Shown piece by piece: positions 29,930 to 52,696 of a stretch of DNA of 64,000 nt; position 1 is the stretch's first letter, and each line of letters begins with the position of its first letter. Source of the DNA: Cellulosimicrobium cellulans (GTDB lineage: Bacteria > Actinomycetota > Actinomycetes > Actinomycetales > Cellulomonadaceae). Both the position numbers and the translations under genes were made by a program. The notes under the pieces were generated by a model that was given only the letters and a program-made list of their open reading frames with translations, had not been told where the DNA came from and made no database searches. The stretch covers positions 372,001 to 436,000 of the forward strand of contig NZ_JAMXST010000005.1 in the NCBI RefSeq assembly GCF_024124905.1, given 5' to 3'.

Positions 29930-29944
29930 CTCTCTGACACCCAG

Positions 29945-30034
29945 CCGCCGAGCACGACATGAGGGTCGTTATCCAGCCGATAGCGACCCTCATGTCGTGC
30001 TCGAGGGCGGGTGGCGTTGTGCTCGGTGCGAGCC
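29945..30034. repeat. Dispersed asymmetric palindrome, copy D
   Basis: A stem-loop at 29945-30010: arm GCCGAGCACGACATGAGGGT, centre CGTTATC...GATAGCG, return arm CCCTCATGTCGTGCTCGA. It is followed by a half-arm at about 30010-30028 (GTGGCGTTGTGCTCGGTGCG). It lies just after the asparaginase stop. Confidence 0.85.
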
Positions 30035-30798: not shown

Positions 30799-30826
30799 CC
30801 ACTCCGGTCCCTGCCGCCCCCACCCC

Positions 30827-30911
30827 GCGCCGAACACGACGTTGCTGTCGTTATCCGGCGGATAACGACAGCAACGTCGTGTTCGACCGCGCGCGGGGTC
30901 GTGGTCGGCGG
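30827..30911. repeat. Dispersed asymmetric palindrome, copy E
   Basis: A nearly perfect stem-loop at 30827-30892: GCGCCGAACACGACGTTGCT, inner GTCGTTATC...GATAACGAC, return AGCAACGTCGTGTTCGACC. A half-arm follows at about 30892-30911 (GCGGGGTCGTGGTCGGCGGC). It lies between the convergent ends of GH19 and the esterase. Confidence 0.88.
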
Positions 30912-33440: not shown

Positions 33441-33494
33441 CGTGTTCTCCTCGTCGAGATCCGTTGATGTGCTGCCCCCTCCCCCCTCCCCCAC

Positions 33495-33585
33495 GCGCCG
33501 AACACGACATGAGGGTCGCTATCCGGTCGATATCGACCTTCATGTCGTGGTCGACGGCGCGCAGGGTCGTGCTCGGCGCCGGGGC
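33495..33585. repeat. Dispersed asymmetric palindrome, copy F
   Basis: A stem-loop at 33495-33562: arm GCGCCGAACACGACATGAGG, centre CTATC...GATAT, return arm TTCATGTCGTGGTCGACGGC. The half-arm is at about 33563-33583 (AGGGTCGTGCTCGGCGCC). It lies between the end of the ten-gene operon (stop at 33587) and the esterase promoter. Confidence 0.86.
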
Positions 33586-33586
33586 G

Positions 33587-34474
33587 CTAGCCGGCCGGGC
33601 GGCGGTCCGCCAGGGCCAGCACGGTGCGCGCGCGCTCGACCATCGCGACGTCGAGGAACGTGCCGTCCGCGAGCGCGACGACGCCCGTGCCCGACGCCGC
33701 GGCGTCGCCGACGCGGTCCACCACCTCGTGCGCGCGGGCCACCTCGTCCGGGGTCGGGAGGAACGCGTCGCGGATGGTGTCGAGCTGCGCGGGGTGGATC
33801 GCGGTGCGGCCGCAGAACCCGAGCGACCGCCCGGCGCGGCACGACGCCGCGAGCCCGTCGAGGTCGCGCACGTGCGTGTACGCGGACATCGCGGGCGACG
33901 GCAGCCCCGCCGCCCGGGCCGCGACGACGACCCGGCTGCGCGCCCACGCGAGCCCGGCCTCGTCGTCGACCCGCAGGTCGGAGCGCAGGTCCGCCTCGCC
34001 GAGCCCGAGCGACGCGACCTGCGGCGACGCCGTCGCGAGCTCGAACGCGCGCTCGACGCCGAGGGCCGACTCGACCAGCAGGTGCAGCGCCCGCCCGGGG
34101 AGCGCCGCCGCGAGCGCGCGCACCTCGTCGACGGACTCGACCTTCGGCGCGCGCGCCCCGACGGCGAGCGGGAGCCCGGCGAGGGCCGCGACGTCGGCGG
34201 CGTGCCACGGCGTCGCGGGGTGGTTGATCCGCACCTGGACCCCGCGCGCGGCGGCGGCCTCGTCCAGCAGCCCGACGGCGTTCCCCCGCGCCTCGTCCTT
34301 GCGCGCCGGCGCGACGGCGTCCTCGAGGTCCACGAGCACGACGTCGGCCGCGGACCCGAGCGCCTTGGCCACCCGGTCGGGCCGGTCCGCGGGCACGTAC
34401 AGCAAGGTCAGCGGCGGCGCACCGGCCCGGGACGCGCGCCGGTCTCCCGGACCCGGCCGAGCGCCCGCACTCAT
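33587..34474 (-). CDS. CitE/HpcH-family CoA-ester lyase
   Basis: A 295-residue member of the HpcH/HpaI aldolase/citrate-lyase-beta family. Seen: LTLLYVPADRPDRVAKALGS (substrate-binding Arg), VVLVDLEDAVAPARKDEAR (the CitE signature), VRINHPATPW, HLLVESALGVERAF (metal-binding Glu) and LGLGEADLRSDL (metal-binding Asp). Relatives cleave (S)-malyl-CoA, citramalyl-CoA or related beta-hydroxyacyl-CoA esters with Mg2+. Its ATG at 34474 overlaps the stop of the CoA-transferase gene by 4 bp, so the two probably act in sequence: CoA activation, then C-C cleavage. Last gene of the ten-gene operon, followed by repeat copy F. Confidence 0.88.
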   Translation of the reverse strand: MSAGARPGPGDRRASRAGAPPLTLLYVPADRPDRVAKALGSAADVVLVDLEDAVAPARKDEARGNAVGLLDEAAAARGVQVRINHPATPWHAADVAALAGLPLAVGARAPKVESVDEVRALAAALPGRALHLLVESALGVERAFELATASPQVASLGLGEADLRSDLRVDDEAGLAWARSRVVVAARAAGLPSPAMSAYTHVRDLDGLAASCRAGRSLGFCGRTAIHPAQLDTIRDAFLPTPDEVARAHEVVDRVGDAAASGTGVVALADGTFLDVAMVERARTVLALADRRPAG

Positions 34475-35691
34475 ACCGCGCCCTCCGCCCGGAGCTCCGC
34501 GACGCGCTCGGGCGAGAAGCCGAGCTCGCCGAGCACAGCGTCGGTGTCGGCGCCGTGCGCGCGGCCGGTGAAGCGGATGACGCCGTCGTTCTCGGACATC
34601 CGGAACAGCGGGCCCTGCATGAGCATCGGCCCGAGCTCGGGGTCCTCGATCTCGTGGATCGTGCCGAGCGCGCGGAACTGCGGGTCGTCGACGATGTCCT
34701 GGGCGTCGTAGATCGGCGCGACGGCGGCCTGCGCCTCCTCGAACGCGGCGACGACCTCGTCGCGCGTGCGCTGCGCGATCCAGCCGCCGACGGCCTCGTC
34801 GAGCAGGTCGGCGTGCTGCGCGCGCTCGACGCCGCTCGCGAACCACGGCTCGTCGACGATCTCGGGGCGCCCGACGAGGCGCATGACGCGCTCGGCGATG
34901 GACTGCGCCGACGTCGACACCGCGACCCACTGCCCGTCGCGCGTGCGGTAGGTGTTGCGCGGCGCGTTGTTCGCGGACCGGTTGCCGGTGCGCGGCTGCA
35001 CGGTGCGGAGCTGGTCCCAGCGCGTGATCTGCGGCCCGAGCATCGCGAGGATGGGCTCGATGATCGCCGTGTCGACGACCTGCCCGTGCCCGGTGCGCTC
35101 GCGCGTGGACAGCGCGACCATGACGGCGAACGCGGTCGCGAGCGACGCGACGCCGTCGGCGAGCCCGAATGGCGGGAGGGTCGGCGGGCCGTCGGGCTCG
35201 CCGGTCATCGCGGCGAACCCGCTCATCGCCTCGGCGAGCGTGCCGAACCCGGGGCGGGTGCGGTACGGCCCGACCTGCCCGAACCCGCTCACGCGCGCGA
35301 GCACGAGCCGCGGGTTGCGCGCGGACAGCTCGTCGTAGCCGAGGCCCCAGCGCTCGAGCGTGCCGGGCCGGAAGTTCTCGATGACGACGTCCGCCTCGGC
35401 GACGAGCGCGAGGAACACCTCGCGGCCGCCGTCGCTCCCGAGGTTCGCGGTGACGGTGCGCTTGTTGCGCCCGAGCGTCTTCCACCACAGGTTCACGCCG
35501 TCCTTCGCGGCACCGTGCGTCCGCGACGGGTCGGGCTTCGTGGGGTGCTCGACCTTGACGACGTCGGCGCCCAGGTCGCCGAGGTGCATCGCCGCCATGG
35601 GCCCGGCGAACAGCGTCGACGCGTCGACGACGCGCAGGCCCGCGAGCGCGCCCGCGGCCGGGTCGCGCGAGACGCGCGGTGCGTCCGTCAT
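34471..35691 (-). CDS. CaiB/BaiF-family (class III) CoA-transferase
   Basis: A 406-residue class III CoA-transferase. Seen: LAGLRVVDASTLFAGPMAAM, LGADVVKVEHPTKPDPSRTH, NKRTVTANLGSDGGREVFLA, VVIENFRPGTLERWGLGYDE and a long C-terminal domain ending GELGFSPERVAEL. The catalytic Asp of the family is expected in the central region near GFGTLAEAMSGFAAMTGEPD. It moves CoA between carboxylic acids and so activates an acid intermediate at the expense of an acyl-CoA. GAGGAGG at 7 nt supports the ATG at 35691, and it overlaps both neighbours by 4 bp. With the CitE-like lyase it suggests that an organic-acid part of the substrate is broken down as a CoA ester. Confidence 0.9.
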   Translation of the reverse strand: MTDAPRVSRDPAAGALAGLRVVDASTLFAGPMAAMHLGDLGADVVKVEHPTKPDPSRTHGAAKDGVNLWWKTLGRNKRTVTANLGSDGGREVFLALVAEADVVIENFRPGTLERWGLGYDELSARNPRLVLARVSGFGQVGPYRTRPGFGTLAEAMSGFAAMTGEPDGPPTLPPFGLADGVASLATAFAVMVALSTRERTGHGQVVDTAIIEPILAMLGPQITRWDQLRTVQPRTGNRSANNAPRNTYRTRDGQWVAVSTSAQSIAERVMRLVGRPEIVDEPWFASGVERAQHADLLDEAVGGWIAQRTRDEVVAAFEEAQAAVAPIYDAQDIVDDPQFRALGTIHEIEDPELGPMLMQGPLFRMSENDGVIRFTGRAHGADTDAVLGELGFSPERVAELRAEGAV

Positions 35692-37766
35692 GCCGTCACC
35701 TCCTCGGCGGGCTGGTCGGCGGCGAGGTCCCACGCGCAGCGGAACCCGACGGTCGCGCCGCGCGCGAGCCCCAGGCCGGGGACGAGGAGCTTGACGGCGT
35801 AGTCGGCCGCGTGGCGCCCGCCCTCGACGTACCAGTCGGAGCCCTCGGCGCGGTAGTCGCTGCCGCCCTTGAGCATGACGAACCGGGTGCGGCCGTCGGA
35901 GTGCTCGGAGCCCGTCCAGCTCCACACGGCGGGCTCACCGCGCGCCCAGCCGGGCTGCTCGGCCGCCAGCTGCCACTCGTCCTCGGTGGGCAGGCGCCCG
36001 CCGCGCCACGCGCAGTACGCCCGCGCGTCGTCGAGGTCGACGAACGTCACGGGCTCGTCCTCCGTGCCGGGCGCGGGACGGCCGTCCTTCCAGTGCGCGA
36101 GGAAGCGGTGCGCGACAGCGGGCACGTACCCGGTGGCCGCGAGGAACTCCGCGAACTCCGCGTTCGTCACGTCGCTCCCGACCGCGACCGGAGCGGCGAG
36201 CTCGCCGTCGCGCTGGAGGGTCCGCGCGTCGTGCAGACGTGGCGGGAGCGGCTTCCACTCGTCCACGTACGGCGCACCCTGGTACATCCCGGTCTCGCGC
36301 GCGCGGTACCGGACGGTCAGCACGTACGGCCCCGCGGGCACGACGACGGCCCCCGCCCCGGGCGCACCGCTCGCCCCGGGAGCCGCGACGGTCTCGGCAG
36401 CGGGTGCGAGACGCCGCGCGAGGCGGTGCGGGAACCGCGCGTCGGGGTCGTGCGGCGCGGTCTCGTCGAGCGCGGCGACCGTGTCGCGCAGGTGCGGCAG
36501 CCAGTCGGGCTCGCCGACGCCGTCCGCCACGCACAGCACCGCGGCGACCCCCCGCCCCGGCACCCGCACGCCCCGCCGAACCCGGGATTCCTCCCCACCG
36601 ACGGCCCCGGCCGAGGAACGATCCAGGGTTCGGCGGGAGGGGTGGTCGGGCGGGAGGAGGGGGCCGTCGTAGTCGGACTCCCCGCGGTTGACCAGCGTCC
36701 ACAGGGTCACGCCGTCGAGGTCCCAGCGCGAGGCGTAGACCCCCGCCTCCTCCGCCTCGGGGGCGAGCTCGGTGAGGGGCGTCCACTCGCCGTCGAGCAG
36801 CAGCGGTCGCGCCGCGCGCTGGACCGTGACGAGGCGCTTGACCGTCGCGGCGTCGCGCCGCGACCACCCGACCCACACGCCGAACACGACCTCCCACACC
36901 ATGACGCCCACGCCGTTGAGCCACGCGGACTGGAGCTCCTCGGAGTGGTCGCGGTGCCAGCGGCGCACGTGGTGCTGCATGTGCCGGCGCTCGTACCAGT
37001 GCGCGCGCAGCACGCCGGGCACGGGCGAGTCGGCGAAGAACTGCCCCCACGACGACGAGTGGTCCTCGATGCGCTCGACCGGGAGCTTGGACTCGCCCTC
37101 CAGGACGATGCCCGGGCGCGCGGCCTCGAGCCGCGCGACGAGCTCCGGCTCGGCCTTCTTCAGCGTGTCGAGGAAGACGCCGTCGGCGCCGAGGTCTCGC
37201 ACGACGGCGGCGAGCTCGGTGAGGTCGTCGTCGCCGCGGCGCGTGCCGACGTCCCACGGGTTGTAGTCGACGAACACGTGCAGGCCCGCGTCGTGGAACG
37301 TCCGCACGAGGTCGACGATGCCCGGGACGTCGCGGTAGAAGTCCCACTGGTTGCGGTCGTCGATCCCGATGACGGGGTACGCGTGCCACAGCACGACGGC
37401 GTCGAGGCCGCCGAACCGCTCGCGCGCGTCGGCGAGGAACCGCTCGGGCGTGAACCGGTGCTCCTCGAACGAGTACAGCAGCTCGTCCCACAGCCACACC
37501 TGCGCGACCGTCGAGCACCCCGCGGCCCACGCCGCGTCCGGGCGGTCGTACGCGGCGCCCGTGTACCCGTGGCGGCGGCGCGCGTCGTCGCGCCACGCGG
37601 CGAGGCGCTCGCGCCAGGCCGGGCGGTCGGCGGGGTCGGCCGGGCCGACGAAGATCTTCGCCTCGTCGAGCGCGAGGGACTGCTCGGGCGTGAGCGGCCC
37701 GTCGAGCGCGACCTCGGTCGGCAGGTCGATCGGGCGCGGGACCAGCGGGTCGAACGTGTAGGTCAT
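35688..37766 (-). CDS. TIM-barrel glycosidase-like protein fused to a SUMF1/FGE-like domain
   Basis: A 692-residue fusion. Residues 1-430 look like a TIM barrel of glycoside-hydrolase type: LDAVVLWHAYPVIGIDDR, LHVFVDYNPWDVG, GADGVFLDTL (Asp200) and GIVLEGES (Glu223/225), candidate nucleophile and acid. Residues about 505-680 are a formylglycine-generating-enzyme-like domain (VTNAEFAEFLAATGY, PVTFVDLDDARAYCAWRGGR, LPTEDEWQLAAEQPG, VGFRCAW). The cysteine pair that binds copper in true FGE is missing, so sulfatase maturation is unlikely. Residues about 376-398 are encoded by a 66-bp palindrome that seems to have been inserted in frame. The start at 37766 follows GGGAAAGG. It overlaps the CoA-transferase start by 4 bp. 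Role inferred: hydrolysis of a glycosidic or related bond. Confidence 0.75.
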   Translation of the reverse strand: MTYTFDPLVPRPIDLPTEVALDGPLTPEQSLALDEAKIFVGPADPADRPAWRERLAAWRDDARRRHGYTGAAYDRPDAAWAAGCSTVAQVWLWDELLYSFEEHRFTPERFLADARERFGGLDAVVLWHAYPVIGIDDRNQWDFYRDVPGIVDLVRTFHDAGLHVFVDYNPWDVGTRRGDDDLTELAAVVRDLGADGVFLDTLKKAEPELVARLEAARPGIVLEGESKLPVERIEDHSSSWGQFFADSPVPGVLRAHWYERRHMQHHVRRWHRDHSEELQSAWLNGVGVMVWEVVFGVWVGWSRRDAATVKRLVTVQRAARPLLLDGEWTPLTELAPEAEEAGVYASRWDLDGVTLWTLVNRGESDYDGPLLPPDHPSRRTLDRSSAGAVGGEESRVRRGVRVPGRGVAAVLCVADGVGEPDWLPHLRDTVAALDETAPHDPDARFPHRLARRLAPAAETVAAPGASGAPGAGAVVVPAGPYVLTVRYRARETGMYQGAPYVDEWKPLPPRLHDARTLQRDGELAAPVAVGSDVTNAEFAEFLAATGYVPAVAHRFLAHWKDGRPAPGTEDEPVTFVDLDDARAYCAWRGGRLPTEDEWQLAAEQPGWARGEPAVWSWTGSEHSDGRTRFVMLKGGSDYRAEGSDWYVEGGRHAADYAVKLLVPGLGLARGATVGFRCAWDLAADQPAEEVTA
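36572..36637. repeat. Palindrome inside the TIM-barrel/SUMF1 gene
   Basis: Arms CCCGCCGAACCCGGGATTCC (36572-) and GGAACGATCCAGGGTTCGGC (36615-) pair with few mismatches around a 20-nt loop. The outer bases GCCGAAC match the intergenic family A-F, though the inner stem differs. It keeps the reading frame. Confidence 0.7.
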
Positions 37767-37819
37767 GGTGCCTTTCCCTCGGCGGGCCGGGCCCGCGCTC
37801 GGTCGTGCGGTGAACAGGC

Positions 37820-38872
37820 TCAGGTCGGTCGGGTGAGGCCCTCGGCCCGCCGCGCGAGCGCGACGACGTCCGCCGCGTCGGGCACGGCGTCCTGCGCCCC
37901 GGGCCGGGTCACCGCGAGCGCGCCCGCGGCGGCGGCGAGCCGCGCGGCGTCGGGCAGGTCGGCGCCGCGAGCGAGCGCCGCGGCGAGGACACCGCAGAAG
38001 GTGTCACCCGCACCCGTCGTGTCGACGGCGTCGACGGCGATCGCGGGGACGAGGGTGAGCAGCTTGCCGCCGGGCAGCCGCTCGAGCACGAGACTGCCCC
38101 GGCCGCCGAGCGTCACGACGACGGCCGGCACCCGCTCGATCAGGAGCCCGGCGAGGCCCTCGGGGTCGACGTCGCCCGCCGTCTCCCCCTCGGGACCCGG
38201 AGCGCCCTCGACGCCCTGCACGTCTCCGGGAGGTGGCGCCGCACGGAGGTCAGCCCCGGCGAGGTCCGCAGCCTCGTGCTCGTTGACGACGAGCACGTCG
38301 ATCTCGGCCCAGAGGTCGTCCGGGAGATCGCGCGACGGCGCCGCGTTGAGGACCAGCAGCGCGCCCGGTCGGCGCGCCGCGGCGGCGGCGCGCACGACGT
38401 CGAGCGGGATCTCGAGCTGCGCGAGCACGACGTCCGCGGCGGCGATCCGCTCGGCCTGCGCCGCGCCGATGCTCACGTACGAGTTCGCGCCGGGCGCGAC
38501 GACGATCGCGTTCTCGCCGTCGGGCGAGACGGTGATGAGCGCGGTGCCTGTCGCGGCGTCCACGCGCTCGACGAGGTCGGTCCGCACGCCGCCGCGGTCG
38601 AGCGACGCGAGCAGCAGGTCGGCCGCGTCGTCGTGCCCGAGCGCGCCGACGAACGTCGTCTCGGCACCGCCCGCGCGCGCCGCGCCGACCGCCTGGTTCG
38701 CGCCCTTGCCGCCGGGGTTGCGCCGCAGCTCGCCGCCGAGGATGGTCTCCCCGCCACCGGGGTGCCGCGGCACGTCCACGACGAGGTCGACGTTCGCCGA
38801 CCCGACGACCACGACCCGTCCCGAGCCGCCCGGGACCGTGGCGGCCTGCTCCCCGTCCGCCGTCGTGCTCAT
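37820..38872 (-). CDS. rbsK: Ribokinase (PfkB family)
   Basis: A 350-residue PfkB-type sugar kinase that best fits ribokinase: VVVVGSANVDLVVDVPRHPG at the start, the NPGGKGANQAVGAARAG signature, LAQLEIPLDVV, VVVTLGGRGSLV and the catalytic DTTGAGDTFCGVLAAAL near the end. It converts D-ribose plus ATP into ribose-5-phosphate. The ATG at 38872 overlaps by 4 bp with the stop of the ADP-ribosylglycohydrolase-like gene. This pairing is the strongest sign that the operon releases free ribose. An Ala/Pro/Glu-rich loop at about 215-240 is longer than usual. The assignment to ribose rather than another pentose is from family resemblance. Confidence 0.85.
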   Translation of the reverse strand: MSTTADGEQAATVPGGSGRVVVVGSANVDLVVDVPRHPGGGETILGGELRRNPGGKGANQAVGAARAGGAETTFVGALGHDDAADLLLASLDRGGVRTDLVERVDAATGTALITVSPDGENAIVVAPGANSYVSIGAAQAERIAAADVVLAQLEIPLDVVRAAAAARRPGALLVLNAAPSRDLPDDLWAEIDVLVVNEHEAADLAGADLRAAPPPGDVQGVEGAPGPEGETAGDVDPEGLAGLLIERVPAVVVTLGGRGSLVLERLPGGKLLTLVPAIAVDAVDTTGAGDTFCGVLAAALARGADLPDAARLAAAAGALAVTRPGAQDAVPDAADVVALARRAEGLTRPT

Positions 38873-40368
38873 GCCCGTACCTCCTCTGGGGGACCCTGCA
38901 CGGCTCCCCCGGCCACCACGACCGGGACCGTCGCGAGCGCGACCGTCCGCGCCGCGAGGTCCACGATCCTCTGCTCGCCGCCGGGCAGCGAGGTCGCGAT
39001 GCGGCCGTCGAGCGGGCGCGTCCACTGCGGGCCGATCCCGTCGACGCCCTGCAGCGCACCCACCACGCCGCCGACCGTCGCGCCGGCGGAGTCGGTGTCC
39101 CACCCCGCGGTGACGGCGATCGCGACGCTCGCGCCGAAGTCGCCGCGGCCGTCCGCGCCGCGCCCCGCGGTGAGCGCGTAGGCGATCACCGCGGCGTTGT
39201 TGAGCACGTGCACCCAGTGCAGGTCGCCGTACGCGGCGTGGATCGCGTCGAGCCCGGCGCGCACGCCCGCCTCGGACGCCTCGCCGTCGCGGCCCGCGTC
39301 CCTGCCGAGCCGGATCGCGGCGGCCAGGCGGCTGCCCGGCGGCACGACGGCGTCCGCCGCGTCGAGCACCTCGTCCACCGTCTCGCAGACCATCGCCGCC
39401 GACGCGAGCGCGGCCGCCCATATCGCGCCGTACGCGCCGTTGCGCGTGTGGCTCAGGCGCGCGTCCGTCCACGCGAGGCGCGCGGCCTCGCGCACGTCGC
39501 CGGGCGAGACCCAGCCGAGCACGTCCGTGCGGATGAGCGCGCCGATCCACTCGCGGAACGGGTTGTGGTGCGTCGCCGTCTCCGGCACCGGCCGCGCGTC
39601 GAGGATGTTGCGGTACGCGGCGCGCTCGGCGGTGAACACGCGGCCCGCGGGCAGCGCGTCGAGCCAGAGCTGCGCGACGTCGTCGGTCGTGAAGCCGCGC
39701 CCGTGCCGCTCCAGCAGGGCGAGCGCGAGGATCGGGTAGTTGAGGTCGTCGTCCTCCGGCATCCCGTCGATGTTCTCCTCGAGCGACGTCGGGGCGCTGC
39801 GCCGGTTCCACGGCCAGCGCGCGGCGACGTCGTCGGGCAGCCCGACGGCGGTGAACCAGCGGTCGAGCGGCCACCGGCCCGTCGCGCGCAGGATCTCCTC
39901 GATCCCGGCGCGCGGGATCTTCTCGACCGGCTTGCCAAGCAGGCAGCCCGCCGCGCGGCCGGTCCAGGCGCCGAGCACGCGGTCGGCGTACGCGGCGTCG
40001 GCGGCGGTGGCGGTTCCGGTCGCCGCGCCGGCGGCCGTGCCGCCGGGAGGCCCGACGGCGCCCGGGCGGGTCGGCAGGCCGGGCGCCGCCGGGAGCGTGG
40101 CGAGGATCGCGTCCCAGTCGTCGGGCTCGTGCGGCGCGGGCGCCGCGGGCAGCGCGTCCAGCTCGACGAGCAGGTCGCGCGCGAGCGCGCGCAGCGCCGG
40201 GGTCGCGGGCACCGGTCCGGCACCGCTCACCGCGGGGACGGGGTCCCCGCCCGCAGCGGTCCAGCGCTCGCGCACGTCGGCGAGCGCCGCAGGGTCCTTG
40301 CCCTCCGCCGTCGCCTGGACGAGCTCGTGCGCGAGGAGGTCCTCGGGCTGGGCCCAGGTGAGCCTCAC
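38869..40368 (-). CDS. ADP-ribosylglycohydrolase-family protein, long form
   Basis: A 499-residue protein with about 125 extra N-terminal residues (helical, Ala/Pro-rich), then the ADP-ribosylglycohydrolase fold. The Mg2+-binding acid clusters appear as MPEDDDLNYPILALALLERH and, near the end, TAGWDTDSAGATVGGVVGAL; GAWTGRAAGCLLGKPVEKIP marks the start of the domain. Family members cleave N- or O-ribosyl bonds, for example of ADP-ribosyl arginine or dinitrogenase reductase. Here, between an ABC importer and ribokinase, a role on an imported small riboside is more likely (inference). The GTG at 40368 overlaps the upstream stop by 4 bp. It differs strongly from its neighbour, so the pair may act on different linkages. 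Confidence 0.88.
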   Translation of the reverse strand: MRLTWAQPEDLLAHELVQATAEGKDPAALADVRERWTAAGGDPVPAVSGAGPVPATPALRALARDLLVELDALPAAPAPHEPDDWDAILATLPAAPGLPTRPGAVGPPGGTAAGAATGTATAADAAYADRVLGAWTGRAAGCLLGKPVEKIPRAGIEEILRATGRWPLDRWFTAVGLPDDVAARWPWNRRSAPTSLEENIDGMPEDDDLNYPILALALLERHGRGFTTDDVAQLWLDALPAGRVFTAERAAYRNILDARPVPETATHHNPFREWIGALIRTDVLGWVSPGDVREAARLAWTDARLSHTRNGAYGAIWAAALASAAMVCETVDEVLDAADAVVPPGSRLAAAIRLGRDAGRDGEASEAGVRAGLDAIHAAYGDLHWVHVLNNAAVIAYALTAGRGADGRGDFGASVAIAVTAGWDTDSAGATVGGVVGALQGVDGIGPQWTRPLDGRIATSLPGGEQRIVDLAARTVALATVPVVVAGGAVQGPPEEVRA

Positions 40369-41594
40369 GCCGGGTCACCCGCCCGCGCGGGCTGCGCCGC
40401 GCCGTCGGGCACGCCGGGTCCGCTCCCGTCCACGGACGCGCCGCCGAGCTCGGCGAGCGCGCGCAGGCGCGACGTGGCGCGCTCGCGGTCGGAGCGGAGG
40501 ATGTCCGCCGCCGCGGACGCCATGAGGCGACCCGTCTCGCGGATGTCCATGCGGCTCGCGTCCTCGATCGCGTCGAGCCACTCGTCCGGCACGACGGCGG
40601 TCCCGCCCAGCCCGGCGCACACGGCACCGGCCATGACGGCGATCGAGTCGGCGTCGCGCCCGTAGTTCACGGCGCCGAGCACGGCGCCGCGGAAGTCGCC
40701 GTGGTGCCCGAGCACGAACCCGAGCGCGGCGGGCAGCTCCTCGATGGACTTGGTGCGCGACGGGCGCCGCGCGTCCATCGACATCTGCCGGTACGCGGGC
40801 CCGACGGAGTCGAACGGCGCGACCGTGTCGCGGATCAGCCGCGCGAGGGCGCGCTCCTCCTCGTCGGTGGTGGGCGCCGTCGTCCAGCCGTCGAAGGCGT
40901 CGACGACGGCGCGCAGCGCGGCGGCCGTGCCGTCGTGCGCGACGTCGAGCGCGGCGTGCACGACGTCGTCGACCGTCGCCCCGGGCGCGACGGACGCGGC
41001 GACCATGGCCGCGAACACGCCCGCGGCCTCGCGGCCGTAGCTCGACTGGTGCGCGCCCGTGAGGTCGATCGCCTCGGCGTACGCGCCGCGGGGGTCGCCC
41101 GCGTTCGCGAGGCCGACCGGCGCGACGTACATCGCCGCGCCGCAGTTGACGACGTTCCCGACGCCCGCCTCGCGCGGGTCGACGTGCCCGTAGTGCAGGC
41201 GCGCGACGATCCACTTCTCGGCGAGGAACACGCGCTGGAGCAGCAGCGCGGTCGACTCGAGCTCGGGGATCCACCGCGGCTCGCCGATCATGAGCGGCAC
41301 GAGGTCCTCGGCCATCGCGTACGCGTCGAGGTGCTCGCGCCGCTTCGCGTACACCTCCACGAGCGCGCGCGTCATGAGGGTGTCGTCCGTGACGTGCCCG
41401 TCGCCCTTGTGGTAGGGCGCGATCGGACGCGCGTCCTGCCAGTTCGGGTACCAGGGCTCGACGATCCCCGTCACGCGCCCCCCGTGGCGCTCCTCGATCT
41501 GCTCGGGGGTCCAGCCCTCGGTGGCGCCCCCCAGCGCGTCCCCCACCGCCGCTCCGGTGATCACTGCCACCGCTCGGTCGTCCAGCCAGGTCAC
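40365..41594 (-). CDS. ADP-ribosylglycohydrolase-family protein, short form
   Basis: A 409-residue ADP-ribosylglycohydrolase-fold protein. GAAVGDALGGATEGWTPEQI marks the start and GHVTDDTLMTRAL holds the first metal-binding DDT; YGRDADSIAVMAGAVCAGLG holds the second acid cluster. The metal residues look intact, so it should be an active hydrolase on a ribosyl or related glycosyl bond. The GTG at 41594 follows GGGAG by 6-7 nt. It directly precedes the second family member and ribokinase. Family members outside classical ADP-ribosyl chemistry are poorly known; this operon suggests a nutrient-processing role. Confidence 0.88.
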   Translation of the reverse strand: MTWLDDRAVAVITGAAVGDALGGATEGWTPEQIEERHGGRVTGIVEPWYPNWQDARPIAPYHKGDGHVTDDTLMTRALVEVYAKRREHLDAYAMAEDLVPLMIGEPRWIPELESTALLLQRVFLAEKWIVARLHYGHVDPREAGVGNVVNCGAAMYVAPVGLANAGDPRGAYAEAIDLTGAHQSSYGREAAGVFAAMVAASVAPGATVDDVVHAALDVAHDGTAAALRAVVDAFDGWTTAPTTDEEERALARLIRDTVAPFDSVGPAYRQMSMDARRPSRTKSIEELPAALGFVLGHHGDFRGAVLGAVNYGRDADSIAVMAGAVCAGLGGTAVVPDEWLDAIEDASRMDIRETGRLMASAAADILRSDRERATSRLRALAELGGASVDGSGPGVPDGAAQPARAGDPA

Positions 41595-41664
41595 GGTCCA
41601 CTCCCTGTCGATCTCTCCTCGGCGCGGGTCGCGCCCGGTGCGACCCGTGGGGGCCGCGGTTCCC

Positions 41665-41697
41665 GGCGGGGGCGGTCGACCACCGACCGACCCCGCC
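41665..41697 (-). terminator. Hairpin between binding protein and hydrolase genes
   Basis: GGCGGGGGCGGTCGACC and its near-complement CGACCGACCCCGCC form a stem of about 14 bp in the 113-bp gap after the binding-protein stop. Such hairpins often stop part of transcription or protect the upstream message, so that binding protein is made in excess. Confidence 0.5.
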
Positions 41698-41707
41698 GCT
41701 TGTCCTG

Positions 41708-42997
41708 CTACTTGGTGATCTCGTCCCAGCCCGACTCGAGCTCGGTCGCGAGCTGGTCGGCGTCGATCTCCTGGGCGAGGAACTTCTGGTACGCGGGCGT
41801 CGCGACCGTGTCCTTCCACTGCGCGTACGCGTCGACGAACAGGTACGGCGCGGACGTGAGGAACTGACCGGACGAGAGGATCGTCGACCAGCCGTTCTCG
41901 TCGCCGAGCGACGTCGCCATGGCCTCCTGCGCCGACGTCGTCGCCGGGATGAGCGCGTCCGCCTCGTTGAGCGCAGCGAGGTTCTCGGTGTCGGTGAAGA
42001 ACTCGATGAACTCCGCGGACTCCTCGACGTGCTCGGAGTCGATGTTCACCGACAGGGTCTGCGGGTTGGCGGCCTGCTCGGCGCCGTCGGGACCCTCGAG
42101 CGGAGGCAGCACGACCCAGTCGAAGCCCTCGGGCGCGTCGTTGGCGATGTTCGCGGCCTGGAACGAGCCCTGGATCGTCATCGCGACCTGGCCGCCGTAG
42201 AACGACGCGAGCGTCTCCGACCCGGACTGCGTGAGGGTCACCGGCAGCACCGTGTTGTCGGTGTGCGCCATCTCGTCGACGAGCTCCGGCAGCGCCATCT
42301 CGCCCTCGCCGATGGTGATGCTCGCGTCGGCGCCGGTGCCCTCGAAGTACTGGCCGCCGAACCCGGGAGCCATCGCCATGAACGCGGCCGTCGGGCTCGC
42401 GAGCCCCCACCCGAGCCCGTACGCGCCGTCCTTCGTGGTGGCCTTGGCGATCTCGCGCAGCTCGTCCCACGTCATGGTCTCGCCCGTGGGGATCTCGACG
42501 CCCGCGGCCTCGAGCATCGTCCTGTTCGCGAACACCATGTAGGACTGCAGCTCGGTCGGGTACGCGATGACCTGGTCGTCGACGGTCACGGAGTCGAGGA
42601 TGCCCTCGGGGATGTCGGCGCGCTTCTCGTCGGACATGTACTCCGACAGGTCGGCCAGGTAGCCGTCCACGGCGAAGGGCACGATGCTCGCCGCCTCGTA
42701 GTGGATGATGTCCGGCGCGGCGCCGCCGTTGAACTGCGTGATGAGCTTGTCGTAGATGCCGTCCCAGCCCGCGGGCACGATCTCGACCTGGACGTCGGGG
42801 TTCGCCTCGTTCCAGTCGGCGACGATCTTCTCGGTCGCCTCGATCGCGGCGGGCTGGTCGGACAGCGACTGGAACTTCAGCGTCACGGGGCCGCCGTCGG
42901 TGCCGTCGTCCCCGCTGCCGCCCCCGCTGGAGCAGGACGCGACGAGCAGGGTCGTGATCGTGAGGCATGCGGCGATGGACGCACCACGAGTCTTCAT
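41708..42997 (-). CDS. CUT1-type extracellular solute-binding lipoprotein
   Basis: A 429-residue binding protein of family 1. The lipobox is LVASC with Cys at about 22, followed by SSGGGSGDDGTDGG. The mature part has VTLKFQSLSDQP, WNEANPDVQVEIVPAGWDGI, APDIIHYEAAS and the usual two-lobe pattern. It should capture the substrate outside the cell and deliver it to the two permeases at 43040 and 43871. The ATG at 42997 follows GAAAGG. The gene order, permeases before binding protein, is less common. The ligand is unknown; the context suggests a riboside or other glycoside. Confidence 0.9.
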   Translation of the reverse strand: MKTRGASIAACLTITTLLVASCSSGGGSGDDGTDGGPVTLKFQSLSDQPAAIEATEKIVADWNEANPDVQVEIVPAGWDGIYDKLITQFNGGAAPDIIHYEAASIVPFAVDGYLADLSEYMSDEKRADIPEGILDSVTVDDQVIAYPTELQSYMVFANRTMLEAAGVEIPTGETMTWDELREIAKATTKDGAYGLGWGLASPTAAFMAMAPGFGGQYFEGTGADASITIGEGEMALPELVDEMAHTDNTVLPVTLTQSGSETLASFYGGQVAMTIQGSFQAANIANDAPEGFDWVVLPPLEGPDGAEQAANPQTLSVNIDSEHVEESAEFIEFFTDTENLAALNEADALIPATTSAQEAMATSLGDENGWSTILSSGQFLTSAPYLFVDAYAQWKDTVATPAYQKFLAQEIDADQLATELESGWDEITK

Positions 42998-43039
42998 GGT
43001 TCTACCTTTCGGGTGGGGGTGGTTCGGGGGTTCATGGGG

Positions 43040-43867
43040 TCACCCCTTGACGGCGCCGGACAGCAGGCCGCCGGTGAGCTTCTTCTGCATGATCGAGAAG
43101 AAGACGATGCTGGGGATGGCCGCGAGCACGGAGCCCGCGGCGAGGGGACCGAGCGCCACCTTGCCCTCGCCGCCGATGAACATCTTCAGCGTGATGGGCA
43201 GCGTGTAGTTCTCGGGCGACTGGAGCAGGACGAGCGCGAAGAAGAACTCGTTCCACGAGGACACGAAGCTGAACATCGCCGTCGCGACGATGCCCGGCAT
43301 GAGCAGCGGGAAGACGATCGTGCGGAGCACGGTGAACCGGCTCGCGCCGTCCATCGAGCCCGCCTCCTCCAGGTCGACCGGGATCGCGGAGACGTAGCCC
43401 TGCATCATCCACAACGCGAACGGGAGGGTGTACGTGGTGTGGACGAGCGTCAGCCCGACGAGCGAGTCCGTGAGCCCGATGGTCCGCAGGATGAGGAACA
43501 GCGGCAGGATGATGAGGATCACCGGGAACACCTGGCTCACCAGGATCCAGCCGACGCCCGCCGCGCGGATCTTGCCGCGCAGGCGCGCGAGCACGTACGA
43601 CGCCGGCAGCGCGATGACGATGACGAGCATCGTCGAGACGACCGCGACGATCGCGCTGTTCCACGCCGAGCGCACGAGGCCCTGCCGCGAGAGCGCCTGG
43701 GAGTAGTTCTCCCAGTGGAAGTCCTGCGGGACCAGGCTCACGGTGAGCGAGTTGAGCTCGCCCGACGACTTGAGCGAGGCCGAGATGAGCCACAGCAGCG
43801 GGAAGCCGAGGAAGAGGATGTAGAACGCCAGGGCCACGTACTGGGCCGGGCGGACGAGTGCGCGCAC
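43040..43867 (-). CDS. ABC sugar permease, MalG type
   Basis: A 275-residue inner-membrane permease with six predicted helices. The EAA loop that docks on the ATPase reads VDLEEAGSMDGASRFTVLRT, and the C-terminus has the MalG-like LTGGLLSGAVKG. It starts with GTG at 43867, only 3 bp after the other permease's stop. It pairs with the permease at 43871 and the binding protein at 41708. No ATPase gene lies in the operon. Confidence 0.92.
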   Translation of the reverse strand: MRALVRPAQYVALAFYILFLGFPLLWLISASLKSSGELNSLTVSLVPQDFHWENYSQALSRQGLVRSAWNSAIVAVVSTMLVIVIALPASYVLARLRGKIRAAGVGWILVSQVFPVILIILPLFLILRTIGLTDSLVGLTLVHTTYTLPFALWMMQGYVSAIPVDLEEAGSMDGASRFTVLRTIVFPLLMPGIVATAMFSFVSSWNEFFFALVLLQSPENYTLPITLKMFIGGEGKVALGPLAAGSVLAAIPSIVFFSIMQKKLTGGLLSGAVKG

Positions 43868-43870
43868 GGG

Positions 43871-44833
43871 TCAGCTCTCCTTCTCGGAGCGGAACTGCGA
43901 CCGCAGGTAGATCGCGAGCAGGAGGACGACGACGACCACGAGGACCACGCCCATCGCGGCGGCGTAGCCGATGTTCCGGTTCTTGAACGCCTCCAGGTAC
44001 GTGAAGAGCATCGGCAGCATGGTCCGACCGCCCGGCCCGCCCTCGGTGAGCACGTAGACCAGCGAGAACGAGTTGAAGTTCCAGATGAAGTTCAGCGACG
44101 TGATGGACGTGATGATCGGCCGCAGGCTGGGGAGCGTCACCGCCGTGAACCGGCGCCACGCGCCCGCGCCGTCCATCGCCGCGGCCTCGTGCAGCTCCTC
44201 CGGGATCTGCTGGAGCCCGGCGAGCAGCGTCACGGTGGTCTGCGGCATGCCGACCCACACCCCGACGACGATCACCGCGGGCAGCGCGGTGGAGAAGTCC
44301 GCGAGCCAGTTGACGTCGTCCGGGAGCCCGAGGGCGCCGAGGAACGCGTTGAGCGGCCCGGCGTTGGGCGAGTAGATCATCTGCCACATGATCGCCACGA
44401 CGACCGGCGGCATGGCCCACGGGATGAGCGCGAGGACGCGCGTCAGCCCCTGGAGCCGGAGCCCGGAGTTGAGCAGGAGCGCGAGGCCCATCGCCGCGAC
44501 GAGCTGGAGCAGCGTCACCGAGACGGCCCAGATCATGCCGATGCGGAACGAGTCCCAGAAGAACGAGTTGTCCGCGAGGCGCACGAAGTTGTCGACGCCC
44601 ACGAACTGGTAGTCCGGGTGGCGCACGAGCCGGGCGTCGGTGAACGCCAGGGCCACGCCCATGACGAGCGGCGCGACGCTCAGCACGAGGATCGGCAGGA
44701 GCGACGGCATGACGAGCGCGATCGCCTCGCGCCGCTTGGCGCGCGCCATCCCGCCGGTCCGGCGCGGGGCGCCCCGGTCGGGCCGACGCGCCGCGGCGGC
44801 GTGCGGGTCGCCCGCCAGGGTCGGGGCGCTCAT
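43871..44833 (-). CDS. ABC sugar permease, MalF type
   Basis: A 320-residue permease with six helices and the EAA motif ELHEAAAMDGAGAWRRFTAV. It ends in a charged tail (LRSQFRSEKES). The ATG at 44833 overlaps the LacI stop by 4 bp, so regulator and transporter are co-transcribed. It forms the transmembrane channel with the MalG-type partner. The ATPase must come from elsewhere. Confidence 0.92.
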   Translation of the reverse strand: MSAPTLAGDPHAAAARRPDRGAPRRTGGMARAKRREAIALVMPSLLPILVLSVAPLVMGVALAFTDARLVRHPDYQFVGVDNFVRLADNSFFWDSFRIGMIWAVSVTLLQLVAAMGLALLLNSGLRLQGLTRVLALIPWAMPPVVVAIMWQMIYSPNAGPLNAFLGALGLPDDVNWLADFSTALPAVIVVGVWVGMPQTTVTLLAGLQQIPEELHEAAAMDGAGAWRRFTAVTLPSLRPIITSITSLNFIWNFNSFSLVYVLTEGGPGGRTMLPMLFTYLEAFKNRNIGYAAAMGVVLVVVVVLLLAIYLRSQFRSEKES

Positions 44834-45930
44834 CGGCGGTCACCTCCGGTCGTGGCGGCCGTGGCGTCCTGCCCGACGGCGCCGCTCACCCCGCCCTGCG
44901 CCCCCGCCTCGGGCGTCGCGGCGGTCGACTCGCGCACGACGAGGCGCGGTCCGACGGCGGTGTGCCGCCCGGCCTGCGCGTCGCCGTCCACGAGGTCGAC
45001 GACGAGCTCCGCGGCGATCCGCCCGCGCTCGGTCGAGCCGAGCGAGACGCTCGTGAGGCTGGGCTGGAACACCCGCCCGATCTCGGTGTCGTCCATGCCG
45101 GTCACGGCGACGTCCTCGGGGACCGACAGCCCGCGCTCGCGCACGGCCCGGATCGCGCCGATCGCGAGCAGGTCGTTGGCCGCGACGATCGCGTCGGGGC
45201 GGGCGCCGTCGTCGGTCCCGTCGAGGAGCGCGAGCGTGGCCGCGAGGCCCGCCGCGACGGTGAAGTCCGCCGCGACGACGGCGTCGGCACGCTCGCCCGT
45301 GAAGTCGTCGGCGCGCGTCGCGGCGTCGAAGCCGCGCTGCCGCGCCTCACCGGGCGTGGTGTCGAGAGGGCCGTTGAGGAACGCGAGGCGGCGGCGGCCG
45401 AGGCCGAGCAGGTGACGCACGGCCTCGCCGATGCCGCCCGCCGAGTCGGTGGACACGGAGTCAATGCCGCGGTCGGCCAGGGTGCGGCCGATGACGACGA
45501 CGGGCACGGGTGCCTGCCGGATCTCCTCGACGAGCTCGTCGTCGGTGCGCAGCGGGCTGAGGATCATCGCGTCGACGAACCCGCTCGACAGGCTGCGCAC
45601 GAGCTCGACGGTCGACCGCGTGGTGTCCCCCGTCGTCATGACGACCACGCGGTACCCGTGCGGCGCGAGCACCTCGTGGATCGCCGTCATCATCTCGACG
45701 TAGACGGGGTTGCCGATGTCGGCGACGGCGAACGCGACCTGGAACGTCTTCTTCAGGCGCAGCGAGCGCCCGATCGCGTCCGGGCTGTAGCCGAGCTCGG
45801 TGGCCGCGGCGCGCACGCGCTCGACCATCGCCGGGCTCGCGCCCGTCCCGTGCAGGGCGCGGGAGGTCGAGGCCAGGGAGACCCCGGCCCGCTGTGCCAC
45901 CTGGATCAGCGTGGCGCGTGATGACGTCAC
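44830..45930 (-). CDS. LacI-family repressor of the ribosyl-compound operon
   Basis: A 366-residue regulator with an N-terminal LacI HTH (LIQVAQRAGVSLASTSRALH) and hinge, then a periplasmic-binding-protein-like ligand domain (FQVAFAVADIGNPVYVEMMT, RRLAFLNGPLDTTPGEARQR, AIVAANDLLAIGAIRAVRER, VAVTGMDDTEIGRV). The GTG at 45930 follows GAGG at about 9 nt; longer open frame upstream runs over the operators and was rejected. It is the first gene of its own operon, and two TGGAAACGTTTCC(A/G) palindromes lie at 36 and 71 bp upstream. Autoregulation with release by the imported compound or an intermediate is the likely logic. Confidence 0.9.
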   Translation of the reverse strand: MTSSRATLIQVAQRAGVSLASTSRALHGTGASPAMVERVRAAATELGYSPDAIGRSLRLKKTFQVAFAVADIGNPVYVEMMTAIHEVLAPHGYRVVVMTTGDTTRSTVELVRSLSSGFVDAMILSPLRTDDELVEEIRQAPVPVVVIGRTLADRGIDSVSTDSAGGIGEAVRHLLGLGRRRLAFLNGPLDTTPGEARQRGFDAATRADDFTGERADAVVAADFTVAAGLAATLALLDGTDDGARPDAIVAANDLLAIGAIRAVRERGLSVPEDVAVTGMDDTEIGRVFQPSLTSVSLGSTERGRIAAELVVDLVDGDAQAGRHTAVGPRLVVRESTAATPEAGAQGGVSGAVGQDATAATTGGDRR

Positions 45931-45966: not shown

Positions 45967-45980
45967 TGGAAACGTTTCCA
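45967..45980. promoter_or_regulatory. LacI-type operator O1 (TGGAAACGTTTCCA)
   Basis: A perfect 14-bp palindrome with the central CG pair typical of LacI/GalR operators, 36 bp upstream of the LacI start. Confidence 0.85.
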
Positions 45981-46001
45981 GATCGGCGACCATGACCGCT
46001 C

Positions 46002-46015
46002 TGGAAACGTTTCCG
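46002..46015. promoter_or_regulatory. LacI-type operator O2 (TGGAAACGTTTCCG)
   Basis: 13 of 14 bases match O1. The centre-to-centre distance is 35 bp. It could also affect the GH19 gene that starts at 46196 in the other direction. Confidence 0.8.
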
Positions 46016-46195: not shown

Positions 46196-47176
46196 ATGCA
46201 CACCCGAGCTCTGGCGTCGCCCTCCCCCGCGGCGGCCGCCGCGGTCGCCCAGCGCCCCGCTTCCCGTCCCCTCGCCCTGCTCCTCGCCGTCTTCCTCGTG
46301 CTCGCGGGAGCGCTCTCCTGGGCGGTCGCCGGGCCGGCGCAGCAGGCGCACGCCGCGACCTGCGCCCCCGCGTGGAGCTCCGGCGCCGTCTACCTGGGCG
46401 GCGCCGTCGTCTCCCACGGCGGCCAGAACTGGAAGGCCGGCTGGTGGACCCAGGGCGAGACGCCCGGCACCACCGGCGAGTGGGGCGTCTGGCGCTCCCA
46501 GGGCGCGTGCGGCGGCGGGACCGACCCGGGCAACCCCGGCAACCCCGGCAACCCGAGCGGCTTCGTCGTCTCCGAGGCCCAGTTCAACCAGATGTTCCCG
46601 AACCGGAACGCGTTCTACACGTACCAGGGCCTGGTCGACGCGTTGTCGGCCTACCCGGCCTTCGCGACGACGGGCGGCACCGAGGTCGCCAAGCGCGAGG
46701 CTGCGGCGTTCCTCGCCAACGTCGACCACGAGACCGGCGGGCTCGTCTACATCAAGGAGATCAACACCGCGAACTACCCGCACTACTGCGACGCCTCGAA
46801 GCCGTACGGCTGCCCCGCGGGCCAGAGCGCGTACTACGGCAAGGGTCCGATCCAGCTCAGCTGGAACTACAACTACAAGGCGGCCGGTGACGCGCTCGGC
46901 ATCGACCTGCTCAACAACCCCTACCTCGTGGAGCAGAACTCGGCCGTCGCCTGGAAGACGGGCCTGTGGTACTGGAACACGCAGTCCGGGCCGGGCACGA
47001 TGACCGGCCACCAGGCGATCGTCAACGGCGCCGGCTTCGGCGAGACGATCCGCTCCATCAACGGCTCTCTCGAGTGCAACGGCGGCAACCCGGCGCAGGT
47101 GCAGTCGCGCATCGCGGCGTTCCAGCGCTTCGCGCAGATCCTCGGCACGACGACGGGCTCGAACCTGTCCTGCTGA
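46196..47176 (+). CDS. Secreted GH19 chitinase with N-terminal carbohydrate-binding module
   Basis: A 326-residue exported chitinase. The signal peptide (1-53, LALLLAVFLVLAGAL...AHA) is followed by a CBM5/12-type chitin-binding module (about 55-105, APAWSSGAVYLGGAVVSHGG, NWKAGWWTQGETP), a Gly-Asn-Pro linker with PGN repeats, and a GH19 catalytic domain (about 122-326). Catalytic Glu179 and Glu188 lie in DHETGGLVYIKE. Chitin oligomers would be cut with inversion. The ATG at 46196 follows GAAAGG. The catalytic domain closely resembles the leaderless enzyme at 30145. It shares its upstream region with the LacI operators, so co-regulation cannot be excluded. Confidence 0.93.
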   Translation: MHTRALASPSPAAAAAVAQRPASRPLALLLAVFLVLAGALSWAVAGPAQQAHAATCAPAWSSGAVYLGGAVVSHGGQNWKAGWWTQGETPGTTGEWGVWRSQGACGGGTDPGNPGNPGNPSGFVVSEAQFNQMFPNRNAFYTYQGLVDALSAYPAFATTGGTEVAKREAAAFLANVDHETGGLVYIKEINTANYPHYCDASKPYGCPAGQSAYYGKGPIQLSWNYNYKAAGDALGIDLLNNPYLVEQNSAVAWKTGLWYWNTQSGPGTMTGHQAIVNGAGFGETIRSINGSLECNGGNPAQVQSRIAAFQRFAQILGTTTGSNLSC

Positions 47177-49331: not shown

Positions 49332-49431
49332 GGAGTGTCCTTCCTGGGTGGTGGTGCTCGTTGCCGTGCTGCGTCCCTGCGGCGGGACGGTGGGCCGGGA
49401 CGGCCCGCGGGCCGTCCCGGTGGACCGGTGG

Positions 49432-50724: not shown

Positions 50725-50807
50725 GGTTCCTTCTTCCTTGAAGTGCGTGCGGAGGTGGGTGCTGCTCGAGGACGTGGGCGCGGCGCGCCGGGTCGGCGGG
50801 ACCCGGC

Positions 50808-52674: not shown

Positions 52675-52696
52675 CGTCGACCTCCGGGCGGGACGG

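What the first reader, a model, noticed from the sequence alone, without database searches (positions are those of the whole stretch)
33587..45930. Ten-gene operon combining two ADP-ribosylglycohydrolases, ribokinase, CoA-transferase and CitE-like lyase with a sugar importer
Seen: tight co-orientation with 4-bp ATGA/GTGA overlaps at 44830, 40365, 38869, 35688 and 34471; gene order LacI, two permeases, binding protein, two ADP-ribosylglycohydrolase-family proteins with intact acid clusters, ribokinase, TIM-barrel/SUMF1 fusion, CaiB-type CoA-transferase, CitE/HpcH-type lyase. Known: ADP-ribosylglycohydrolases cleave ribosyl bonds; ribokinase makes ribose-5-phosphate; CaiB and CitE-type enzymes activate and cleave organic acids. 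Inference: uptake and breakdown of an exogenous compound made of ribose linked to an acid-yielding part. I know of no described pathway with this set.
Basis: partly seen in the sequence, partly recalled or inferred. Interest (0 to 1): 0.8.

Follow-up and report, generated by a model that had tools for sequence, protein, structure and literature searches.

The report
Conserved sugar-conjugate import and breakdown operon
Ten neighbouring bacterial genes, kept together in the same order in many soil actinobacteria and partly in rhizobia, look like a complete but undescribed pathway that takes up an unknown compound, probably ribose joined to an organic acid, and feeds both parts into central metabolism.

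Summary
Observation confirmed: the ten genes, their order and all five 4-bp overlaps are as described. Not chance: of 69 uncut loci from named genomes, 58 hold all ten genes, 9 lack only the kinase, and the genes present keep one order in 69 of 69. The palindrome GGAAACGTTTCC occurs perfectly at two places in the 4.67-Mb genome, both upstream of LacI, and within one mismatch in 69 of 72 LacI upstream regions. Importer, two ADP-ribosylglycohydrolase-family (ARH) proteins, CaiB and CitE also sit together on rhizobial plasmids; some related operons carry four ARH proteins. Kinase and SUMF1 fusion are dispensable. The lyase is nearest to RipC but below its cut-off; five of six annotated CaiB relatives that I read sit in organic-acid clusters. 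Best reading: uptake and breakdown of a ribosyl (furanosyl) conjugate of a malate/citramalate-like acid. The substrate and every chemical step are inferred. No structure could be predicted, so the TIM barrel is unverified. Ten paper searches found no description of the set.

The parts
45968..46014 (.). two perfect copies of the palindrome GGAAACGTTTCC (45968-45979, 46003-46014), presumed LacI operators
   Evidence: the only perfect copies in the 4.67-Mb genome; within one mismatch in 69 of 72 named LacI upstream regions against mean 0.7 and maximum 3 of 72 in random 200-bp windows of the same loci
44830..45930 (-). LacI-family regulator (GTG start at 45930)
   Evidence: Pfam LacI (29.1 bits, cut-off 27) and Peripla_BP_3; start seen in sequence
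43871..44833 (-). ABC importer permease 1 (MalF/UgpA-like, CUT1 type)
   Evidence: BPD_transp_1; NCBIfam UgpA and MalF best, below cut-off
43040..43867 (-). ABC importer permease 2 (MalG-like)
   Evidence: BPD_transp_1; NCBIfam GlcU and MalG best, below cut-off
41708..42997 (-). extracellular solute-binding protein
   Evidence: SBP_bac_1; nearest solved chains Lmo0181 and YesO
40365..41594 (-). ARH1, ADP-ribosylglycohydrolase-family protein (GTG start at 41594 likely)
   Evidence: PF03747 159.9 bits; acidic residues invariant in 11 of 11, seven actinobacterial and four alphaproteobacterial
38869..40368 (-). ARH2, ADP-ribosylglycohydrolase-family protein with about 130 residues before the domain
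   Evidence: PF03747 147.8 bits, residues 133-445; acidic residues invariant in 11 of 11, all actinobacterial
37820..38872 (-). ribokinase-like PfkB kinase
   Evidence: PF00294 197.3 bits; TIGR02152 256.5 bits, below cut-off 299.65; GGKGANQ in five of five and GAGD in four of five aligned kinases
35688..37766 (-). unclassified N-terminal domain (TIM barrel only inferred) fused to a SUMF1/FGE-like domain; no signal peptide seen by eye
   Evidence: FGE-sulfatase at residues 532-619; no family for residues 1-420; D200 and E225 invariant in 8 of 8 sequences down to 34% identity
34471..35691 (-). CaiB/BaiF (family III) CoA-transferase
   Evidence: PF02515 399.6 bits; presumed catalytic Asp (position recalled) kept in four of four aligned homologues
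33587..34474 (-). CitE/HpcH-type CoA-ester lyase, nearest RipC/citramalyl-CoA lyase
   Evidence: PF03328; RipC_Ccl 145.6 bits, cut-off 375; R82, E135, D162, D275 invariant in 10 of 10
33496..33556 (.). strong intergenic hairpin after CitE, likely end of the transcript; copy of a dispersed repeat
   Evidence: MFE -62.2 kcal/mol, z -6.3 for 33485-33590; 61 matches in the genome, both strands of the palindrome counted apart, 40 of 158 candidates scored
30921..33494 (-). esterase (PF00756) with beta-propeller repeats, signal-peptide-like N-terminus by eye; optional neighbour, membership in the operon uncertain
   Evidence: within 5 kb downstream on the same strand in 18 of 80 loci

Best explanation
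A single LacI-controlled catabolic operon. Shown by sequence: the gene set, its order, the operators and its conservation. Inferred: the binding protein and two permeases, with an ATPase encoded elsewhere, import a glycoside-like conjugate. In the cytoplasm the two metal-dependent ADP-ribosylglycohydrolase-family enzymes act as glycosidases and cut (ribo)furanosyl bonds. The SUMF1-fusion protein cuts or prepares a further bond in the variants that carry it. The kinase turns the released ribose into ribose-5-phosphate. CaiB moves CoA onto the released acid, a malate- or citramalate-like 2-hydroxy-dicarboxylic acid. The CitE-type lyase splits the thioester into acetyl-CoA and a 2-keto acid (pyruvate or glyoxylate). 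When substrate is absent, LacI holds the operators upstream of its own gene.
For: Same ten-gene order in genera of several actinobacterial orders (orders recalled from genus names). Conserved, genome-unique operator. Importer, ARH1, an ARH2-like protein, CaiB and CitE on rhizobial plasmids, with a ribokinase instead of CaiB-CitE in Agrobacterium. Four ARH genes, kinase, CaiB and CitE without importer in a large-genome genus (L202). A separate Mycolicibacterium plasmid operon with LacI, ARH, importer and ribokinase. Presumed active-site residues kept. Five of six annotated CaiB relatives that I read sit with organic-acid enzymes: isopropylmalate dehydratase plus HMG-CoA-lyase-like, PrpF plus SLC13, RraA plus hydroxyacid dehydrogenase, MmgE/PrpD plus cyclase. 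The lyase is nearest to acyl-CoA lyases 9nzb and 8khl among solved proteins.
Against: No substrate, ligand or activity is known. The kinase and the lyase fall below the curated cut-offs of their nearest named families. One uncut locus lacks CaiB and CitE; another lacks LacI, ARH1, kinase, CaiB and CitE. CaiB-CitE pairs occur without sugar genes, and one CaiB relative sits in another kind of cluster. Six of six kinase-less genomes tested have another ribokinase-like gene, but the same profile rings in 14 of 14 control genomes, so this says little. A Sphingopyxis cluster has kinase, SUMF1 fusion and a CaiB (only 34% identical) with a GH127-type protein and no annotated ARH, so ribosyl specificity is not forced. 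The large-genome genus shows no importer beside the operon. The nearest solved binding proteins do not settle the ligand.
Confidence: 0.5

Rival explanations
1. Same catabolic logic, but the sugar is another furanose (arabinofuranose, apiose or similar) from plant or microbial polymers, and the ARH-family enzymes are general furanosidases; the kinase is a relative of ribokinase with another sugar.
For: A GH127-type (beta-L-arabinofuranosidase-like) protein stands where ARH would be expected in a Sphingopyxis cluster; a SUMF1-fusion homologue sits near GH28 and GH36 genes in Spirosoma; CUT1-type importers usually carry oligosaccharides (recalled); an esterase follows in 18 of 80 loci.
Against: The kinase's best named hit is ribokinase and it keeps the GGKGANQ motif; no arabinose or apiose pathway genes are among the ten.
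Confidence: 0.25
2. Scavenging of nucleosides, NAD-derived ribosides or ADP-ribose fragments; CaiB-CitE handles an unrelated acid in the same niche.
For: The ARH family is known for ADP-ribose bonds (recalled); a staphylococcal triple of ARH, nucleobase-type permease and ribokinase is in print (PMC3637587, passages).
Against: CUT1-type importer rather than a nucleoside carrier; no base deaminase or nucleoside hydrolase among the ten; CaiB-CitE linked to ARH genes in two phyla.
Confidence: 0.12
3. The ARH-family proteins remove ADP-ribose from proteins and regulate or defend; the rest is an ordinary sugar operon.
For: The NCBIfam hits of ARH1 are DraG and Tri1 hydrolases.
Against: Hits are far below cut-off (50.8 against 337.05 and 41.9 against 490); no ADP-ribosyltransferase among the ten; two to four ARH genes inside such operons in many genera.
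Confidence: 0.05

Closest known systems
Itaconate degradation (RipA/Ict CoA-transferase, RipB/Ich hydratase, RipC/Ccl lyase; gene names recalled)
   Same: a CoA-transferase plus a RipC-like lyase; RipC_Ccl is the best NCBIfam hit of the CitE protein
   Different: no hydratase gene among the ten; scores below the RipC cut-off; linked to a sugar importer and ARH genes
Staphylococcal ARH-permease-ribokinase triple (SERP2216-2218; PMC3637587, passages seen)
   Same: ADP-ribosylglycohydrolase next to a permease and a ribokinase
   Different: nucleobase-type permease, one ARH, no CaiB or CitE named; function not tested in the passages seen
E. coli yegTUV and Bacteroides ribose (rus) loci (recalled; no paper on rusGH was found)
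   Same: ARH or ribokinase genes with an importer (recalled)
   Different: other transporter types, no CoA-transferase or lyase (recalled)
DraG/ARH1/ARH3 ADP-ribosylhydrolases
   Same: same Pfam family and acidic motifs
   Different: weak similarity (best solved hit of ARH1 is MJ1187, E 1.1e-9); catabolic operon context; substrate unknown

Membership tests
ADP-ribosylglycohydrolase family (PF03747) | profile score over gathering threshold | tested here: met
   159.9 and 147.8 bits against 26.2
ADP-ribosylglycohydrolase family (PF03747) | conserved acidic metal-site residues (motif meaning recalled) | tested here: met
   invariant in 11 of 11 for ARH1 and for ARH2
ADP-ribosyl hydrolase by activity (DraG, ARH3) | hydrolysis of an ADP-ribosyl bond | not testable with these tools
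   sequence only; DraG equivalog cut-off not reached
Ribokinase (TIGR02152) | equivalog cut-off 299.65 bits | tested here: not met
   256.5 bits; ribokinase-like only
PfkB kinase (PF00294) | profile score over threshold | tested here: met
   197.3 bits against 25.8
Family III CoA-transferase (PF02515) | profile score over threshold and catalytic Asp (position recalled) | tested here: met
   399.6 bits against 23.3; Asp kept in four of four aligned homologues
RipC/Ccl citramalyl-CoA lyase (NF038242) | equivalog cut-off 375 bits | tested here: not met
   145.6 bits
Itaconate degradation operon | itaconyl-CoA hydratase (MaoC-type, recalled) beside transferase and lyase | tested here: not met
   no such protein among the ten
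CUT1-type sugar importer | SBP_bac_1 protein plus two MalF/MalG-like permeases | tested here: met
CUT1-type sugar importer | ATPase subunit available | tested here: inconclusive
   none in the operon; five UgpC-like genes of 43-57% identity elsewhere in the genome
Formylglycine-generating enzyme | paired active-site cysteines in the GGS segment (recalled) | tested here: inconclusive
   read by eye in the alignments: no pair there, but two isolated Cys elsewhere in the domain

The most novel reading that the evidence does not exclude
ADP-ribosylglycohydrolase-fold enzymes are, in these operons, ordinary metal-dependent glycosidases used in sets of two to four for a widespread, undescribed natural ribosyl (furanosyl)-hydroxyacid conjugate. 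The pathway (ARH set, kinase, CaiB, CitE) spans Actinomycetota and Pseudomonadota. Its importer-free form in a large-genome, Streptomyces-like genus means the conjugate is either made by those bacteria themselves or is common enough in soil to be taken up by a general route.
Probability: 0.35. Interest if true: 0.85.

Novelty: new variant of a known kind. Interest (0 to 1): 0.62.

Why it matters
ADP-ribosylglycohydrolases are studied almost only as reversers of protein ADP-ribosylation (recalled), yet here they sit in conserved sugar operons. A pathway in which they work as catabolic glycosidases would explain an unassigned part of the family, point to a natural product with an unusual ribosyl-hydroxyacid make-up, and give a function to an unclassified domain fused to SUMF1. 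The conserved operator and binding protein make the substrate directly searchable.

Tried and rejected
The promoter/terminator scan is not informative here (0 promoters; 1 terminator-like site against 1.4 expected). The phylum-wide search with the SUMF1-fusion profile found only the window's own genome at E<=1e-40 (1 of 396). PHROGs gave only weak or expected hits, and ARH1 DNA has no match in E. coli genomes. The fusion has only two plasmid relatives and ARH2 four plasmid records. Itaconate degradation was rejected as a membership claim (no hydratase, lyase below cut-off). Bacillithiol, methanopterin, thuringiensin, HMG glycosides and modified nucleosides were considered as substrates from memory; none is supported by any search. 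The divergent GH19 chitinase was rejected as a part: it stands directly beyond LacI in 5 of the 80 loci (L058-L062) and about 1.5 kb away in 2 Oerskovia loci (L094, L097). A relation of the third PF03747 gene of the genome to this operon was not seen (L139). None of what I saw describes the gene set.
Full report
WHAT IS THERE. The window lies in a 4.67-Mb genome; the nearest named loci are Cellulosimicrobium (the genus of the window is inferred). On the - strand run LacI 44830-45930, two permeases, a binding protein, ARH1, ARH2, a kinase, a SUMF1 fusion, CaiB and CitE, ending at 33587. Pfam supports every family name except 'TIM barrel'.

IS IT MORE THAN CHANCE. A scan of the named-genome collection with a profile of the SUMF1 fusion gave 200 pattern matches and 171 confirmed relatives, of which the tool kept the best 80. 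I examined all 80. Eleven are cut by contig ends. Of the other 69, 58 hold all ten genes, 9 lack only the kinase, 1 (L118) lacks CaiB and CitE, and 1 (L084) lacks LacI, ARH1, kinase, CaiB and CitE; the genes present keep the same order in 69 of 69. The hosts include Cellulosimicrobium, Promicromonospora, Georgenia, Oerskovia, Cellulomonas, Microbacterium, Amycolatopsis, Prauserella, Saccharopolyspora, Nocardiopsis, Glycomyces and Kribbella. These are the best-scoring relatives, so the other 91 may vary more. In the window's order, 20 of 396 genomes, the window's own included, have a strong match to the fusion (E 1e-168 or better), and one more has a fragment on a short contig; the tool's tally of 124 consists mostly of short SUMF1-only matches. 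The distribution is patchy.

ONE CONTROL REGION. Two perfect copies of GGAAACGTTTCC lie at 45968-45979 and 46003-46014, upstream of LacI. They are the only perfect copies in the genome. Among named loci with a LacI match and at least 120 bp upstream, 69 of 72 have the site within one mismatch, 56 of 72 perfectly, 54 have two and 3 have none; random 200-bp windows of the same loci gave a mean of 0.7 and a maximum of 3 of 72. No promoter-like site was found inside (weak test). After CitE stands a strong hairpin (z -6.3) that is a copy of a dispersed repeat; it probably ends the transcript. An esterase gene follows within 5 kb on the same strand in 18 of 80 loci.

VARIANTS SHOW THE CORE. (a) I fetched 11 neighbourhoods of ARH2 relatives that lie apart from a SUMF1 fusion. 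One (L170) has CaiB, CitE, LacI, importer, ARH1, ARH2 and two more PF03747 proteins, without fusion or kinase. The other ten hold ARH2 paralogues of 43-49% identity, some beside sugar-importer genes; no CaiB, CitE or fusion match was listed for them. (b) A class-wide search with CaiB matched 110 of 394 genomes at E<=1e-100. I fetched 20 neighbourhoods, some cut by contig ends. Nine have ARH1, ARH2, kinase, CaiB and CitE together, four of them with the fusion; five have CitE beside CaiB without ARH; six have neither arrangement. Four of the nine (L201-L204) come from one genus, which in the table has genomes of 6-11 Mb. (c) A Nonomuraea replicon has LacI, importer, four ARH genes and kinase; its CaiB relative (63.5%) lies elsewhere on the replicon. 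(d) ARH1 relatives (39-47%) lie on 20 alphaproteobacterial plasmid records, and a 62% relative on the Nonomuraea record. I read 11 of the 20, several from one Ensifer species. All 11 have LacI, two permeases, a binding protein and ARH1. Ten have a second ARH protein of about 700 residues, whose N-terminal half is most like ARH2 (26%; the C-terminal half matched none of 12 ARH proteins, one protein tested). Six of 11 have CaiB, five of 11 CitE, and one of 11 a ribokinase in line; two more show kinase matches on the opposite strand upstream, one of them only a short piece. (e) A Sphingopyxis plasmid has TonB receptor, ribokinase, SUMF1 fusion, a GH127-type protein and a CaiB of 34% identity, with no annotated ARH in the 16-kb stretch. 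So importer, ARH1 and an ARH2-like protein, often with CaiB-CitE, form the core; kinase and fusion are frequent but replaceable.

WHAT THE PARTS SAY ABOUT CHEMISTRY (inference unless a call is named). ARH1 and ARH2 keep the acidic residues of the family in 11 of 11 sequences each, across two phyla for ARH1. The kinase is ribokinase-like but under the cut-off. Six of six kinase-less genomes that I tested have another ribokinase-like gene of 244-297 bits, none over the cut-off, but the profile also rings in 14 of 14 control genomes, and the window's genome itself has a second such gene, so the test is weak. The lyase keeps R82, E135, D162 and D275 in 10 of 10 and is nearest to RipC and to solved acyl-CoA lyases 9nzb and 8khl. 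Of 170 plasmid records with a CaiB relative (E<=1e-70) I chose 7 from the 30 listed; one is unannotated. Of the six annotated ones, five sit in organic-acid clusters: with isopropylmalate dehydratase subunits and an HMG-CoA-lyase-like gene (Haloferax), with PrpF and SLC13 (Rhodococcus opacus), with RraA and a hydroxyacid dehydrogenase (Shinella and Aureimonas) and with cyclase and MmgE/PrpD (Rhodococcus gordoniae). The sixth (Sphingomonas) sits in another kind of cluster. These contexts suggest a malate- or citramalate-like acid. Malate itself would hardly need this route, so a branched or D-configured acid is likelier (my inference). The importer is of the type that usually carries oligosaccharide-sized ligands (recalled); its nearest solved relatives, Lmo0181 and YesO, do not settle the ligand.

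NOVELTY. Ten searches of the paper library gave no description of this set: six returned nothing and four returned listings. In passages of PMC3637587 a staphylococcal ARH-permease-ribokinase triple is listed. PMC10434189 lists a Bacteroides ribokinase locus; the row seen names no ARH. The library lacks most subscription papers. The recognisable parts belong to known families, so I rate it a new variant of a known kind: a complete, conserved, probably undescribed catabolic operon.

VERDICT. Observation confirmed. Interpretation partly supported: one unit, uptake and breakdown, sugar plus acid are likely; ribose and the hydroxyacid are plausible but untested.

Noticed in passing
window 33496-33556, 29941-30011 and elsewhere in the genome: Dispersed intergenic hairpin repeat of about 66 bp (core ACGACATGAgGGTCG); 61 matches in the genome with both strands of the palindrome counted apart, a lower bound because 40 of 158 candidates were scored. 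Terminator-like or REP-like element.
   Followed up: partly
window 30815-30901: A second, different long hairpin (arms of 43 nt, 84% complementary).
   Followed up: no
window 46196-47176: GH19 chitinase with CBM5/12, divergent from LacI; the two LacI operators lie between them, so it might share control in Cellulosimicrobium.
   Followed up: partly
window 47808-53566: A neighbouring cluster with a FAD_oxidored protein and a DHDPS-like protein; a binding protein and two permeases were recognised by eye among its ORFs. Another uncharacterised uptake cluster.
   Followed up: no
L139 8703-10079 (G000:C6:348777): Third PF03747 gene of the genome, about 22 kb before the window, without visible operon partners.
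   Followed up: partly
L056 (G031:C1:1750600-1770599): Second SUMF1-fusion homologue (50%) divergent from a LacI-type gene (41% match), with kinase-like and GH4-like ORFs recognised by eye.
   Followed up: no
L209, L210, L211, L213, L236: CaiB with CitE (apart in L236) in clusters with Cyclase (PF04199), MmgE/PrpD, FAD-binding and, in L209, a weak Asp/Glu-racemase-like protein, some with Liv-type or MFS transporters: an apparently distinct organic-acid pathway. Pfam was run on five proteins of L209 and one each of L210 and L213; the rest was read by eye or from annotation.
   Followed up: partly
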